In this document: piece after piece, positions 7,695 to 13,027 of the stretch
Numbering within the stretch: the first letter of the stretch is position 1
Layout of the letters: every line of letters begins with the position of its first letter
DNA from: Cytophagales bacterium
GTDB taxonomy: Bacteria; Bacteroidota; Bacteroidia; Cytophagales; MED-G16
Direction: 5' to 3'
Assembly (NCBI GenBank): GCA_029940715.1
Contig: JAPYTU010000008.1
Coordinates: 1 to 34,321 of the forward strand
DNA: 34,321 nt
The notes under the pieces: model-generated
Told to the model about the DNA's origin: nothing
Seen by the model: only the letters and a program-made list of their open reading frames with translations
Database searches by the model: none
Program-made: the position numbers and the translations under genes

Positions 7695-8516
7695 ATGGAA
7701 AATATTATAAAATTTTTTGAAAATATTAATCCAATATTGGGTGCATTTTATGCGACAATGTTTACGTTTATAGTAACCTCATTAGGTGCGTCATTTGCTT
7801 TGTTTTTTAAAAAAATGCACAGAGGAGTATTAGATGGTTTGCTTGGTTTCTCAGGTGGTGTAATGATTGCTGCAAGCTTTTGGAGTCTTCTTGCACCATC
7901 TATCGAAATGTCAAAAGGAGAAGGTTTTCAAAAGGTATTACCAGCAGCTATAGGATTTACATTAGGTGCTGTTTTAATATTTATTATGGATAAAATATTA
8001 CCTCATCTTCATATAAATTTTAAAGAAAGTCAAAAAGAAGGAATTAAAACATCTTTACATAGAACAGTATTATTAGTTTTAGCTATTACACTTCATAATA
8101 TACCTGAGGGTCTAGCTATTGGTGTTTTGTTTGGTGCAGTTGCATCAGGTATACCAGAAGCATCTATATCTGGTGCAGTAATTTTAGCTATTGGTATTGG
8201 GTTACAAAATTTTCCTGAAGGAATAGCAGTAGCTATGCCGTTAAGAAGACTAGGGTTAAGTAGATTAAAAAGTTTTTATTATGGTTCATTGTCTGGAGTT
8301 GTTGAGCCAGTTGCAGGAGTAATTGGAGCTGTTGCTGTTACATTTTTTACTCCTATTTTACCTTATGCGTTATCTTTTGCTGCAGGAGCGATGGTATTTG
8401 TTGTTGTTGAAGAGGTTATACCCGAAACACAGATAGATAAATATACTGATATAGCATCGTTAGGTTTTATTATTGGTTTTGTTATTATGATGTCTCTTGA
8501 TGTAGCTTTGGGTTAA
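7695..8516 (+). CDS. ZIP-family metal transporter
   Basis: HNIPEGLAIGVLFG and QNFPEGIAVAMPLR motifs plus GxxEPVAGVIGA; 2-nt gap after the DtxR-family gene. Confidence 0.93.
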   Translation: MENIIKFFENINPILGAFYATMFTFIVTSLGASFALFFKKMHRGVLDGLLGFSGGVMIAASFWSLLAPSIEMSKGEGFQKVLPAAIGFTLGAVLIFIMDKILPHLHINFKESQKEGIKTSLHRTVLLVLAITLHNIPEGLAIGVLFGAVASGIPEASISGAVILAIGIGLQNFPEGIAVAMPLRRLGLSRLKSFYYGSLSGVVEPVAGVIGAVAVTFFTPILPYALSFAAGAMVFVVVEEVIPETQIDKYTDIASLGFIIGFVIMMSLDVALG

Positions 8517-8539
8517 GCAAAACATATCTATATATTAAA

Positions 8540-8598
8540 TAAACACATATTTTATGTAAGATAGTATACCAACTAGTATACCATTTGATGTAAATTAT
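8540..8598. repeat. Diverged direct repeat A (partner 10956-11014), contains a 12-bp tandem TAGTATACCAAC/TAGTATACCATT
   Basis: Ungapped alignment to 10956-11014 gives about 42/59 identical bases by eye, with the same internal 12-bp duplication. Confidence 0.5.
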
Positions 8599-8599
8599 G

Positions 8600-8890
8600 C
8601 TACAAGAAAATGTCGTTTTCGTAGTCATCTAAACCTACTACCCTACCATCTGCTTTTTTTAATGTTATTCTTTTTTTCAATTGTACTTCTTCGTTACAAT
8701 TGACATCAAACCAGTTATCAAAAGAACGGTCACTGCTTGTTACCGTTTTGGTGTGTACTTCTTTGTTACATACCACTTTTTCTTTTTGCTTTCTTCTTTG
8801 TTCTTCAGCTTCTATTTGTTCTACCGCTAAGTCGTGTTTATCTAACCCTTTTAATTGCTTTTTAGTGAACCTTTTAACTGGTTTAAACAT
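8600..8890 (-). CDS. Hypothetical protein, Lys/Glu-rich, 96 aa
   Basis: ORF of 96 aa; internal near-repeat VVCNKEVHTKTVT / VNCNEEVQLKKRIT; no recognised family. Confidence 0.5.
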   Translation of the reverse strand: MFKPVKRFTKKQLKGLDKHDLAVEQIEAEEQRRKQKEKVVCNKEVHTKTVTSSDRSFDNWFDVNCNEEVQLKKRITLKKADGRVVGLDDYENDIFL

Positions 8891-8973
8891 AACTGTAATG
8901 TCTTCATTTAAACCCGTTATATAGCGTTTAATAGTCTTTAAAACCCGTTTACCTTAAACCCTAACATCTGACA

Positions 8974-9008
8974 TTTGGCTTTTCTCTTGAATCTTGATAG
9001 ATTGAAGT
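8974..9008 (+). promoter_or_regulatory. Bacteroidota-type promoter TTTG-N20-TAGATTG, 4 nt before ATG
   Basis: TTTG 8974-8977, TAGATTG 8998-9004, ATG at 9009. Confidence 0.6.
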
Positions 9009-9374
9009 ATGAGATACCTATTTATCTTATTATTTTTCTTGTTTTCTTGTAGTTTAATTCTACCAGAACCATTGCCTTCTTACACATTAGAATTACGATA
9101 CACAGATGAATCAACAACTCCAAGATTAACTTTTATTCAAATCTCTTTAATTAATTATGTGCTTGATGTTACATCGCAAAATCAAACTTTTACTCTTGAT
9201 ATAGGATTGCTAAAAATTGATGATGTGAGAGTAACATTAACATTTAGTTGTGAAGTTGGTAATAACTTATATAATGAAGATGTGATTGTTAATTTTTATG
9301 AAGATTCTAAAACAGTATTAGAAATATCTAGAGTTGTCGTTTGCAATCCCGACATTATTGTGTTGTATGAATAA
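9009..9374 (+). CDS. Hypothetical lipoprotein, 121 aa
   Basis: Signal peptide with lipobox-like LFSC (MRYLFILLFFLFSCS); preceded by promoter-like element. Confidence 0.6.
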   Translation: MRYLFILLFFLFSCSLILPEPLPSYTLELRYTDESTTPRLTFIQISLINYVLDVTSQNQTFTLDIGLLKIDDVRVTLTFSCEVGNNLYNEDVIVNFYEDSKTVLEISRVVVCNPDIIVLYE

Positions 9375-9386
9375 ACAAAAAACCCC
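9372..9386 (+). repeat. Stop-codon-associated repeat TAAACAAAAAACCCC (partial copy 1)
   Basis: Same string starts at the stop codon in copies at 9472 and 9646. Confidence 0.6.
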
Positions 9387-9387
9387 T

Positions 9388-9474
9388 ATGGATAAAGAAA
9401 CTATAAAATTAATTATTTATGTTATTGTAGGTTTTCTTGCAGTAATTATTCCTTATTATCTATTCTTTAACTAA
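9388..9474 (+). CDS. Candidate 28-aa single-TM micropeptide (MDKETIKLIIYVIVGFLAVIIPYYLFFN)
   Basis: ORF not in supplied track; ATG 14 nt after the preceding stop; one hydrophobic helix. Confidence 0.35.
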   Translation: MDKETIKLIIYVIVGFLAVIIPYYLFFN

Positions 9475-9537
9475 ACAAAAACCTCACTAACCCCACTCCC
9501 CTTTTGAATTTTTCTTTGATAGTTGTAGATTGTAGGT
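9472..9537 (+). promoter_or_regulatory. C-rich repeat module with promoter TTTTG-N19-TAGATTG, 5 nt before ATG (copy 2)
   Basis: TAAACAAAAACCTCACTAACCCCACTCCCCTTTTGAATTTTTCTTTGATAGTTGTAGATTGTAGGT, near-identical to 9646-9710. Confidence 0.7.
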
Positions 9538-9648
9538 ATGGAATCGTTGTTAAGAGCATTAGCTTCAATATTAAAATTCGAGGTAAGAACTAGAAAAACT
9601 TCAGCGGTTAAAAAAAGAAGATTTAGAAAAACTTACAAATCCAATTAA
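9538..9648 (+). CDS. Candidate 36-aa basic peptide (MESLLRALASILKFEVRTRKTSAVKKRRFRKTYKSN)
   Basis: ORF starting 5 nt after the -7 element of copy 2 and ending at the stop embedded in copy 3. Confidence 0.4.
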   Translation: MESLLRALASILKFEVRTRKTSAVKKRRFRKTYKSN

Positions 9649-9710
9649 ACAAAAAACCCCACTAACCCCACTCCCCTTTTGAATTTTGTTTTGATAATTG
9701 TAAATTGTAG
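9646..9710 (+). repeat. C-rich repeat module with promoter TTTTG-N19-TAAATTG (copy 3, no adjacent ATG)
   Basis: TAAACAAAAAACCCCACTAACCCCACTCCCCTTTTGAATTTTGTTTTGATAATTGTAAATTGTAG, near-identical to 9472-9536. Confidence 0.7.
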
Positions 9711-9883
9711 TTTGAGAATTATATAAATAATATAGTCAATTATATACCCATATATTAGAATTTGAAAGCAAAACAAGAGTCATTGTTTCTTAGTCAAATG
9801 AAGGAGGGTGTTTAATTTTTTAGCTTAAATATGTTAAACATTTGAGTTTTATATTTTTTAAGAATTTTAATATTTTTTTTGAA

Positions 9884-9915
9884 TTGTTCATTTTAATAAA
9901 TAATGAATATTTTTG
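9884..9915 (+). promoter_or_regulatory. Bacteroidota-type promoter TTG-N21-TATTTTTG
   Basis: TTG 9884-9886, TATTTTTG 9908-9915, upstream of the dienelactone hydrolase gene at 9933. Confidence 0.5.
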
Positions 9916-9932
9916 TTTAAAACCAATCTATC

Positions 9933-10721
9933 ATGAAAATTATTTTTGTCTTCTTTTTTTTAATATTATTATCTTGTTTTCAACAAGATAATAAATCAAT
10001 GGTTAAAAAAGAGATTAAATATCAACTGGATACTTTGCAAATGCATGGTTATTTGGTTTATGACGAATCAATAAAAGAGAAAAGACCTGCTATATTAGTC
10101 GTTCATGAGTGGTGGGGACAAAATAAATATCCTAGAAAAAGGGCAGAAATGATTGCAAAATTAGGTTATGTAGCCTTTGCCGTTGATATGTATGGCAATG
10201 GTAAAGTTGCTGAACATCCAAAAGATGCTGGTGCATTTAGTTCGTCTATAATGAGGGATTTTGAAACTAATAAAGAAAGATTTTTAAAAGCAATGGAGGT
10301 TGTGAAAGGGTTTGAATTTGTTGATAGTTCTAAAATTGGTGCAATTGGTTATTGCTTTGGAGGTGGAGTAGTTCTAAATATGGCTAGATTAAATGTTGGC
10401 CTGTCTGGTGTTGCTAGCTTTCATGGTTCTCTAGGAAAAGCAATCAGTTATACTGGTCCAACATTAACTAAAATTTTAGTTTGTAATGGTGCAGACGATA
10501 GAATGGTTGGAAGTGATGCAACCTTAAGGTTTAAAGAAGAAATGGATTCTTTAAAAACAGATTACCAATTTGTGAATTATCCCAATAGTTTACATGGATT
10601 TACTAATCCTGAATCAACTATTAATGGAGAAAAATTTGGTATTGGATTAGCCTACAATAAAGAGGCTGACCTACAATCTTGGGAAAAAATGCAAACTTTT
10701 TTTCAAGCTATTTTCAAATAA
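9933..10721 (+). CDS. Dienelactone hydrolase family protein, secreted/lipoprotein-like
   Basis: EWWGQNKYPRKRAEMIAKLGYVAFAVDMYGNGK, GAIGYCFGGGVV, catalytic Cys nucleophile elbow, LHGF. Confidence 0.92.
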   Translation: MKIIFVFFFLILLSCFQQDNKSMVKKEIKYQLDTLQMHGYLVYDESIKEKRPAILVVHEWWGQNKYPRKRAEMIAKLGYVAFAVDMYGNGKVAEHPKDAGAFSSSIMRDFETNKERFLKAMEVVKGFEFVDSSKIGAIGYCFGGGVVLNMARLNVGLSGVASFHGSLGKAISYTGPTLTKILVCNGADDRMVGSDATLRFKEEMDSLKTDYQFVNYPNSLHGFTNPESTINGEKFGIGLAYNKEADLQSWEKMQTFFQAIFK

Positions 10722-10741
10722 AAAATTATTTTAGCCTTTTT

Positions 10742-10799
10742 TTTAGTTCTACTAGTTCGTTGCTTCGCTTGTTGCTTGACGCAATCGCTCGCAACTAAA
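10742..10799. repeat. GC-rich stem-loop-like intergenic element
   Basis: TTTAGTT (10742-10748) complementary to AACTAAA (10793-10799), with internal TTGC-TTGAC-GCAA hairpin; base composition contrasts with flanks. Confidence 0.4.
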
Positions 10800-10846
10800 G
10801 TATTCTTTACCTTGAATGCTGTTTAAATCTTGTGACCTATTTTGTA

Positions 10847-10930
10847 ACCCAAAGTTTATTTTTTACAGATAATTTAATAGCTAACTGATGAATTAAGCTT
10901 TATTTTAGTGTTTTGTTAATGTTTTGGGTT
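10847..10930. repeat. 84-bp direct repeat copy 1, inverted termini ACCCAAA...TTTGGGT
   Basis: Ungapped 720-bp-offset match to 11567-11650, 9 mismatches by eye. Confidence 0.85.
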
Positions 10931-10955
10931 GAAATAAACTTTTCTGAAGTATAAT

Positions 10956-11014
10956 TAAACACACATTTTAAGAGTGTTAGTAATCCAATTAGTAACCCAA
11001 AAAATACAAATTAT
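10956..11014. repeat. Diverged direct repeat B (partner 8540-8598), contains 12-bp tandem TTAGTAATCCAA/TTAGTAACCCAA
   Basis: Manual alignment to 8540-8598. Confidence 0.5.
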
Positions 11015-11037
11015 ATATAAAATTTAGACCACTCCCC

Positions 11038-11073
11038 TTTTGAATTGAGCTTTGATGTTTTTAGATTGAAAGT
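11038..11073 (+). promoter_or_regulatory. Promoter module TTTTG-N19-TAGATTG, 5 nt before ATG (copy 4)
   Basis: ACTCCCCTTTTGAATTGAGCTTTGATGTTTTTAGATTGAAAGT followed by ATG at 11074. Confidence 0.65.
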
Positions 11074-11373
11074 ATGAAATGGTACTTTATAATCATATTT
11101 TTTGTATTTAGTTGTACTAATTTTAGTCAAACGTGGAAAGAATACTATTATAGTGGTCTCAAAAAATATGATAATAGAGACTATAATGGTGCTATAGTTG
11201 ACTTTACTAAATCAATTGAACTTAATCCTAATTTTGTTTATGCTTATTTCAATAGAGGTGTTGTAAAAGAAATTATGAATGATAGAAACGGTGCTTGTGC
11301 AGACTACAAAATAGCAGCAAAAATGGGACATAAGGGTGCTGAAGAAATTATATGGGATGACCATTGTAAATAA
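11074..11373 (+). CDS. Small TPR lipoprotein-like protein, 99 aa
   Basis: FFVFSCTN lipobox-like; DYNGAIVDFTKSIELNPNFVYAYFNRGVVK TPR motif. Confidence 0.75.
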   Translation: MKWYFIIIFFVFSCTNFSQTWKEYYYSGLKKYDNRDYNGAIVDFTKSIELNPNFVYAYFNRGVVKEIMNDRNGACADYKIAAKMGHKGAEEIIWDDHCK

Positions 11374-11509
11374 AGGCCCAATTCCGATATTATTAGGTGG
11401 TGATACTTCTTTGTTTTCGGAACTTCCGAATGAACTGAAATTTGAACTGATAAACACAAAAACATATTTAAACCAAATAGCACAGAACCATTATAAACTA
11501 AAGAAATAA
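11357..11509 (+). pseudogene. Remnant of a dihydrofolate reductase/RibD C-terminal domain protein (3' end only)
   Basis: Frame reads MTIVNKGPIPILLGGDTSLFSELPNELKFELINTKTYLNQIAQNHYKLKK*, resembling the RibD_C C-terminus (PxLLGGGxxLF...LxLxxxKxYxxxxxxxHYxxKK). Confidence 0.55.
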
Positions 11510-11566
11510 AAACTCCTCATTTTTAAAAGACTTTTAATTATATATTATATACTAACCTTTTTACTT

Positions 11567-11650
11567 ACCCAAAGTTTATTTTTTATTGATAATTTAATCG
11601 CTAACTGATAAATTAAGAATTATTTTAGCGTTTTGTTAATGCTTTGGGAT
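11567..11650. repeat. 84-bp direct repeat copy 2, inverted termini CCCAAAG...CTTTGGG, abutting mnmE
   Basis: Ungapped 720-bp-offset match to 10847-10930. Confidence 0.85.
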
Positions 11651-11653
11651 AAA

Positions 11654-13027
11654 ATGAATACTTCAATTAATAACGATACGATAATTGCTCCCTCAACACC
11701 ATATGGTTTAAGTGCTGTTTCTCTTATTAGATTATCTGGAAAAAAATCTATCTCATTAACTAATAAAATTTTTTTAAATAAAGATTTAAATAAGGTTAAA
11801 TCTCATACAATCCATTTTGGAACTATTAAATACAAAAATAATATTATAGATGAAGTATTAGTATCAATTTTTAAATCCCCCAGATCCTATACAAAAGAAA
11901 ATGTAGTAGAAATTTCCTGTCATGGTTCACCCTATATAATAAATAAAATTATTTCTATTTTTATAAAACTTGGTGTACGAATAGCAAATAAAGGAGAATT
12001 TACATTAAGATCATTTTTAAATGGAAATATGGATCTTTCTCAGGCAGAAGCAGTTGCAGATTTAATATCTTCAAACTCTAAAAATTCTCATAAAATAGCA
12101 TTAAATCAAATTAGAGGTAATTTTTCAAAAAAAATACAAGAATTAAGAAATGAATTAATTGATTTTTCTTCATTAATAGAATTAGAGTTAGATTTTTCTG
12201 AAGAAGATGTTGAGTTTGCAAATAGAAATAAATTATCTAATACTGTAAATAAAATTTTAGAATATTCAAAATATTTAATAAATAGTTACGATGCTACTAA
12301 CGTTTTAAAAAATGGTATAGAAGTTGTTATTACAGGAAAGCCTAATGTTGGAAAATCTACAATTCTAAATGCTTTAATAAATGAAGAAAAAGCAATAGTT
12401 TCAAGTATACCTGGAACTACTAGAGATCTTATAGAAGATACCATAACAATAGGCGGAAATATTGTTCGTTTTGTGGATACCGCAGGCATTAGAAAAGCCA
12501 CAAATAAAATTGAAAAAATTGGAGTTAATAAAGCTATTGAAAAAGCAAGAAATGCATCCATCGTTATTTACATATTTGATTTATTCAATGAATCTTTAGA
12601 ATCGATTAAAAATCAAATTAATTCTAAAATTCTAAAAAATAAAAATGTTATATTAATTGGCAATAAGTCAGATTTAAAGATAAATACTAGTATTATAAAT
12701 TTTTTCAAAAAAAATAATATTATAATAATTTCAGGTAAAAACTTTAAAGATATAAAGAGCTTAATAAATACAATTAATTTAAATATTAATAAAAACATAA
12801 TTAGGGATGAATCTTCTATATCAATTAATCAAAGACATTATGAATCATTATCTAAAGTGAACAATGCTATGGAAAATGTAAAAAAAAATTTGAAAGAAAA
12901 ATCAAATACTGATTTAATTGCATTAGATATAAAATATTCTTTGTCTTATTTAGGTGAAATAACAGGTGAAATTACAAATGATGACATTCTTTCGAATATA
13001 TTTTCTAAATTTTGTATTGGGAAATAA
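11654..13027 (+). CDS. mnmE: tRNA uridine-5-carboxymethylaminomethyl(34) synthesis GTPase MnmE (TrmE)
   Basis: DTIIAPSTPYGLSAVSLIRLSG, GKPNVGKSTILNAL, DTAGIRKA, C-terminal FSKFCIGK. Start at internal Met 11654 preferred over track start 11633. Confidence 0.95.
   Translation: MNTSINNDTIIAPSTPYGLSAVSLIRLSGKKSISLTNKIFLNKDLNKVKSHTIHFGTIKYKNNIIDEVLVSIFKSPRSYTKENVVEISCHGSPYIINKIISIFIKLGVRIANKGEFTLRSFLNGNMDLSQAEAVADLISSNSKNSHKIALNQIRGNFSKKIQELRNELIDFSSLIELELDFSEEDVEFANRNKLSNTVNKILEYSKYLINSYDATNVLKNGIEVVITGKPNVGKSTILNALINEEKAIVSSIPGTTRDLIEDTITIGGNIVRFVDTAGIRKATNKIEKIGVNKAIEKARNASIVIYIFDLFNESLESIKNQINSKILKNKNVILIGNKSDLKINTSIINFFKKNNIIIISGKNFKDIKSLINTINLNINKNIIRDESSISINQRHYESLSKVNNAMENVKKNLKEKSNTDLIALDIKYSLSYLGEITGEITNDDILSNIFSKFCIGK

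What the first reader, a model, noticed from the sequence alone, without database searches (positions are those of the whole stretch)
10847..11650. 84-bp direct repeat with compensating inverted ends, exactly 720 bp apart, flanking an inserted TPR/RibD block next to mnmE
10847-10930 and 11567-11650 align without gaps at a 720-bp offset (9 mismatches by eye). Both have inverted termini: ACCCAAA/TTTGGGT in copy 1 and CCCAAAG/CTTTGGG in copy 2. The paired end bases differ between copies in a way that keeps 7-bp pairing. Copy 2 ends a few nt before the mnmE start codon. This fits duplication of the mnmE leader/att site when a ~720-bp cassette (TPR gene plus gene remnant) was inserted, or a small non-autonomous mobile element.
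Basis: partly seen in the sequence, partly recalled or inferred. Interest (0 to 1): 0.66.

Follow-up and report, generated by a model that had tools for sequence, protein, structure and literature searches.

The report
Two tandem mini-islands downstream of ZIP gene
The repeated 84-base sequence is most likely one arm of an integration site, and it shows that two small gene-carrying elements, one only 720 bases long and neither carrying an integrase, inserted one behind the other at the end of a zinc-transporter gene, just before mnmE, in a marine bacterium.

Summary
The 720-bp-offset repeat is real (75/84 identical; only two copies in the genome; none in relatives), but the reading changes. 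The "compensating" ends are not compensatory: the left arm is identical in both copies and none of the nine differences is a two-sided pair change. Three sites in the window share a TTTGGG core: the 3' end of the ZIP transporter gene (8507), repeat copy 1 (10923) and copy 2 (11643). Left of the core, copies 1 and 2 match (68/76), and neither matches the ZIP end. Right of the core, copy 1 matches the ZIP end (56/85; none of 199,000 random pairs did as well), and neither matches copy 2. This checkerboard is the attL / internal att / attR signature of two site-specifically integrated units in tandem: A (8507-10922, 2,416 bp) and B (10923-11642, exactly 720 bp). In the 11 relatives with an assembled junction, ZIP and mnmE lie 21-113 nt apart without insertion. 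Copy 2 is followed by the ancestral-type ZIP stop (GG|ATAA). Neither unit encodes an integrase, and only Xer-type recombinases in the genome look usable. Best reading: orphan, CIME-like tandem accretion at a protein-gene 3' end. New member of a known kind; the 720-bp unit is strikingly small.

The parts
7695..8516 (+). ZIP-family metal transporter gene; its 3' end (GCTTTGGGTTAA) is the integration target
   Evidence: Pfam Zip E=2.2e-25; directly precedes mnmE in 11 relatives
8507..8512 (+). attL core TTTGGG inside the last ZIP codons
   Evidence: shared with 10923 and 11643
8513..8597 (+). right arm (P') of unit A, with the 12-bp-period direct repeat TAGTATACCA-AC-TAGTATACCA at 8562-8583
   Evidence: 56/85 identical in exact register to 10929-11013; null maximum 52 of 198,913 random pairs; repeat pattern unique to this window in 391 genomes
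8507..10922 (+). unit A, 2416 bp: small ORFs, a 36-aa basic ORF, a dienelactone-hydrolase-family lipoprotein; no integrase
   Evidence: bounded by att cores; Pfam DLH; no PF00589 hit in the window
9933..10721 (+). dienelactone hydrolase family gene, cargo of unit A
   Evidence: PF01738 E=1.6e-40
10847..10922 (+). left arm (P) of unit A = bulk of repeat copy 1; its GTAACCCAAA (10844) recurs in the right arm at 10992
   Evidence: 68/76 identical to 11567-11642
10923..10928 (+). internal att core TTTGGG, junction of units A and B
10929..11013 (+). right arm (P') of unit B with TAGTAATCCA-AT-TAGTAACCCA at 10978-10999
10923..11642 (+). unit B, exactly 720 bp core to core: right arm, promoter repeat, TPR gene, dihydrofolate-reductase-family 3' fragment, left arm
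11027..11068 (+). dispersed promoter-like repeat (CCACTCCCCTTTTGAA..TAGATTG) 6 nt before the TPR start
11074..11373 (+). small TPR gene, cargo of unit B
   Evidence: Pfam TPR; 73% identical orthologue downstream of mnmE in G003
11381..11511 (+). 3' fragment of a dihydrofolate-reductase-family (RibD-like) gene
   Evidence: 77.9% nt identity to NZ_CP092416.1
11567..11642 (+). left arm (P) of unit B = bulk of repeat copy 2
   Evidence: 68/76 identical to copy 1
11643..11648 (+). attR core TTTGGG, followed by ATAA = ancestral-type ZIP stop (GGA TAA)
   Evidence: 7 of 11 distinct relatives' ZIP genes end GGATAA
11654..13027 (+). mnmE, right chromosomal flank
   Evidence: Pfam TrmE_N / MnmE_helical

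Best explanation
Two related elements, A and then B or the reverse, were inserted by a site-specific integrase of the tyrosine type at the 3' end of the ZIP transporter gene, exchanging strands within or next to a 6-8 bp core (TTTGGG). Tandem integration leaves attL (ZIP end + A's right arm), an internal full att site (A's left arm + B's right arm) and attR (B's left arm + the original ZIP stop and mnmE). The incoming element re-supplies the ZIP stop codon (GGT TAA in place of GGA TAA), so the target gene stays intact. Neither unit carries an integrase, so they are orphan elements of the CIME kind (cis-mobilizable elements: attL/attR kept, recombinase lost), movable only if a helper integrase appears. 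Shown: the three-site anatomy, the register, the empty sites and the lack of an integrase. Inferred: tyrosine-type enzyme, the order of events, and past or present mobility.
For: Arm checkerboard: left arms X1/X2 68/76 against 28-29/76 for the other pairs; right arms attL/X1 56/85 against 26-29/85 for the other pairs; random pairs mean 26.1, sd 4.6, maximum 52 of 198,913. In a scan of all ~68,000 placements in the window on both strands, the next best right-arm match scores 36 against 58. Both right arms hold two direct repeats with a 12-bp period at the same distance from the core; core plus repeats occurs twice in 391 genomes of the order, both times here. All 11 relatives with an assembled ZIP-mnmE junction are empty (21-113 nt). 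After the attR core comes ATAA, the usual end of the relatives' ZIP gene. No integrase-family match in the window.
Against: No autonomous relative with the same att arms was found, so the enzyme is unknown. No sibling genome of the same genus is held, so an empty site in the same species was not seen; the implied pre-insertion ZIP-mnmE gap (1 nt) is shorter than in any relative (21-113 nt). The right arms are only 66% alike. Excision or circular forms cannot be tested from one assembly.
Confidence: 0.86

Rival explanations
1. Segmental duplication of the mnmE promoter/leader (for example tandem duplication of mnmE and a TPR gene, then deletion), leaving a promoter remnant at copy 1.
For: Copy 2 abuts mnmE; a TPR orthologue lies near mnmE in G003; relatives carry a promoter-like TTTTAGTAnTTTTG just before mnmE, resembling TTTTAGCGTTTTG in copy 2.
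Against: No relative has the repeat upstream of mnmE; similarity ends exactly at the core, not within mnmE; it does not explain the right-arm match between copy 1 and the ZIP end.
Confidence: 0.06
2. Integron-type gene cassettes: the repeat is an attC site and TPR and DLH are cassettes.
For: Small single-gene units in one direction with a repeat after each; GTTAAGC at the ZIP end fits the GTTRRRY core.
Against: The copy 2 boundary reads GGGATAA, with no GTT; bottom strands do not fold clearly better than shuffles as DNA (z -0.45 and -1.39); homology on both sides of the core (right arms) is not an attC feature; the recombinases scanned score below the integron-integrase cut-off (the C58 Xer-like protein was not scanned).
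Confidence: 0.04
3. A small non-autonomous transposable element (MITE) with CCCAAAG termini, inserted twice.
For: Discrete unit with inverted ends and sharp boundaries.
Against: Two copies only in the genome, none in 391 genomes; no target-site duplication; does not explain the right-arm match or the ZIP stop codon at attR.
Confidence: 0.02
4. A structured RNA leader of mnmE, copied upstream.
For: Copy 2 folds better than 200 shuffles as RNA (z -4.2).
Against: Copy 1 does not (z -1.0); no two-sided covariation among nine differences; no Rfam match at gathering threshold; not upstream of mnmE in relatives.
Confidence: 0.02

Closest known systems
CIMEs and tandem accretion (ICESt1-related elements of Streptococcus thermophilus; definition in PMC5704250)
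   Same: Elements without integration or transfer genes that keep att sites, integrated in tandem at the 3' end of a gene with an internal att site
   Different: Target is a ZIP transporter gene in a marine Cytophagales-type MAG; units are very small (2.4 kb and 720 bp); no resident ICE/IME or integrase seen
Dehalococcoides ssrA genomic islands (PMC3146451)
   Same: Several tandem islands separated by short direct repeats of a gene 3' end, some without an integration module
   Different: Those with a module use a serine recombinase and a 20-bp ssrA repeat; here the core is 6-8 bp with long arms and no recombinase is present
Integron gene cassettes
   Same: Short single-gene units bounded by a recombination site
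   Different: Double-sided arm architecture, no attC fold or consensus, no integron integrase recognised

Membership tests
CIME (cis-mobilizable element) | Flanking attL and attR retained | tested here: met
   Core and arms at 8507-8597, 10847-11013 and 11567-11648
CIME (cis-mobilizable element) | Integration genes lost | tested here: met
   No PF00589 match in the window; no recombinase among the unit ORFs by Pfam or PHROGs
CIME (cis-mobilizable element) | Transfer/mobilisation genes lost | tested here: met
   No relaxase or conjugation family among the unit ORFs scanned with Pfam
CIME (cis-mobilizable element) | Derived from a formerly autonomous ICE/IME | tested here: inconclusive
   No autonomous relative sharing the att arms was found
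CIME (cis-mobilizable element) | Can be mobilised by an integrase in trans or in cis | not testable with these tools
   needs an excision assay
Tyrosine-recombinase attP | 6-8 bp overlap with long arms carrying repeated arm-type sites | tested here: met
   TTTGGG core; TAGTAnnCCA x2 with 12-bp period in both right arms. That the repeats bind an integrase is inferred
Integron attC | GTTRRRY / RYYYAAC ends | tested here: not met
   Copy 2 ends GGGATAAAA
Integron attC | Strongly folded bottom strand | tested here: not met
   DNA fold z -0.45 and -1.39
Integron | Integron integrase in the genome | tested here: inconclusive
   Xer-like C33 and degenerate C99 proteins do not reach the integron-integrase cut-off; C58, a 298-aa Xer-like protein, was not scanned; MAG 93% complete

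The most novel reading that the evidence does not exclude
The 720-bp unit is not a decayed island but a working minimal mobile unit (full att site plus one promoter-bearing gene) that is inserted and stacked by a helper integrase in trans, in effect a gene-cassette system independent of integrons in streamlined marine Bacteroidota.
Probability: 0.13. Interest if true: 0.72.

Novelty: new member of a known kind. Interest (0 to 1): 0.4.

Why it matters
It shows how very small accessory modules can enter small marine genomes: site-specific stacking at the end of a protein gene, with the target gene's stop codon restored and a tRNA-modification gene (mnmE) cut off from its upstream neighbour. It gives a precise att signature (core plus arm repeats) for finding the unknown integrase and for surveying insertion states in ocean metagenomes. 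If such 0.7-kb units still move, cargo size in non-integron site-specific elements reaches down to single genes.

Tried and rejected
mnmE leader duplication: rejected by empty sites lacking the repeat. RNA covariation: none. Rfam: no match at gathering threshold. MITE or dispersed repeat: two copies only. attC: fold and consensus fail. A possible further right arm on G000:C22 lies inside an 812-aa membrane-protein gene and lacks the core, so chance. Viral contigs, phages and plasmids hold no copy of the att arms (the only plasmid hit is the DHFR fragment). The conserved 389-aa tyrosine-recombinase-like protein (G000:C99) was considered as the helper, but it appears to lack catalytic residues in this genome. 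The GC-richer stretch 10741-10800 was folded and is unremarkable. Two early calls used a wrong mnmE frame.

Full report
Observation. The two copies (10847-10930 and 11567-11650) align without gaps at exactly 720 bp with 9 mismatches (86% over 104 bp, E=6.5e-29). The CCCAAAG/TTTGGG ends are present in both, against an expectation of 0.04 such patterns in the window. The claimed compensation fails: the left arm ACCCAAAG is the same in both copies, and all nine differences have an unchanged partner or are unpaired. Only copy 2 folds better than shuffled sequence as RNA. There are no further copies in the 1.62-Mb genome, and nothing convincing in the family or in 391 genomes of the order.

Surroundings. 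The window lies in a marine MAG close to Marinoscillum/Flammeovirgaceae records. In every relative with an assembled junction (11 genomes of the family), the ZIP transporter gene is followed by mnmE after 21-113 nt. Here 3,137 nt separate them, filled with small ORFs, a dienelactone hydrolase, a small TPR gene and a dihydrofolate-reductase-family 3' fragment (the fragment is 77.9% identical to a gene on a Flagellimonas plasmid).

The key result. TTTGGG occurs at the ZIP 3' end (8507), at the right end of copy 1 (10923) and at the right end of copy 2 (11643). Left of the core, copies 1 and 2 match 68/76, while both pairs involving the ZIP end are at background (28-29/76). Right of the core, the ZIP end and copy 1 match 56/85, while both pairs involving copy 2 are at background (26-29/85); among 198,913 random pairs the maximum was 52. 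An independent scan of all placements in the window gave a next best score of 36 against 58. Both right arms contain two direct repeats of TAGTAnnCCA with a 12-bp period at the same distance from the core. The core-plus-repeats pattern occurs twice in 391 genomes of the order, both in this window, and never in 2.9 million viral contigs.

Reading. This is the pattern left by tandem site-specific integration: attL = target + right arm of unit A; internal att = left arm of A + right arm of B; attR = left arm of B + target. The sequence after the attR core, ATAA, is the end of a ZIP gene of the commonest type among relatives (GGA TAA, 7 of 11), whereas attL reads GGT TAA, supplied by the element. 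The target gene therefore keeps its C-terminus. Unit A is 2,416 bp and unit B 720 bp, which explains the exact offset. The long arms, repeated arm-type sites and short core point to a tyrosine integrase (inference). No integrase is encoded in the window; the genome's matches are two Xer-like proteins (C58, C33) and a 389-aa protein (C99) in which catalytic positions look changed.

Known relatives. The structure fits the definition of a CIME given in PMC5704250 (integration and transfer genes lost, attL and attR kept, tandem accretion) and resembles integrase-less tandem ssrA islands in Dehalococcoides (PMC3146451). It does not meet attC criteria. Membership in the CIME class is met structurally; origin from an autonomous element and present mobility are untested.

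Limits. There is one MAG, no second genome in the genus, and no autonomous relative found. The implied pre-insertion gap between the ZIP stop and the mnmE ATG at 11654 is 1 nt, shorter than in relatives. A chimeric assembly is unlikely, because both flanks keep the relatives' gene order.

Noticed in passing
window 9477-9544, 9652-9719, 11013-11080; about 34 places in G000 (clusters on C1, C118, C63, C4): Dispersed repeat ctaaCCCCACTCCCCTTTTGAATTTTTCTTTGATAGTTGTAGATTG, often ending ~6 nt before an ATG: a Bacteroidota-type promoter (TTTG-N19-TAgaTTG) with a conserved CCCCACTCCCC box, repeated through accessory-gene clusters in one direction within a contig even where neighbouring genes point the other way. 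Also in relatives G001, G003, G012. Could be a regulon box or a cassette boundary.
   Followed up: partly
L263:3628-4797 (G000:C99) and L265:5129-6307 (G001:C18): A ~390-aa tyrosine-recombinase-like protein in the same gene neighbourhood in G000 and G001, with similar-sized matches in most family genomes; catalytic positions look changed, especially in G000, suggesting a domesticated or inactive recombinase.
   Followed up: partly
L165:5251-5562 (G003:C21): Orthologue (73% aa) of the unit B TPR gene lies ~1.6 kb downstream of mnmE in another genus, beside further promoter repeats: both sides of mnmE may be accessory-gene zones.
   Followed up: partly
window 11374-11511: The 3' fragment of a dihydrofolate-reductase-family gene begins right after the TPR stop codon; its nearest hit is a mobilizable Flagellimonas plasmid. 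How the fusion arose is unknown.
   Followed up: no
window 10741-10800: A GC-richer stretch (GTTGCTTCGCTTGTTGCTTGACGCAATCGCTCGCAAC) between the DLH gene and copy 1; no remarkable fold.
   Followed up: partly
L266:2091-3127 (G000:C33): A XerC-like gene is split into two ORFs (frameshift, gap or assembly error) in this MAG.
   Followed up: no
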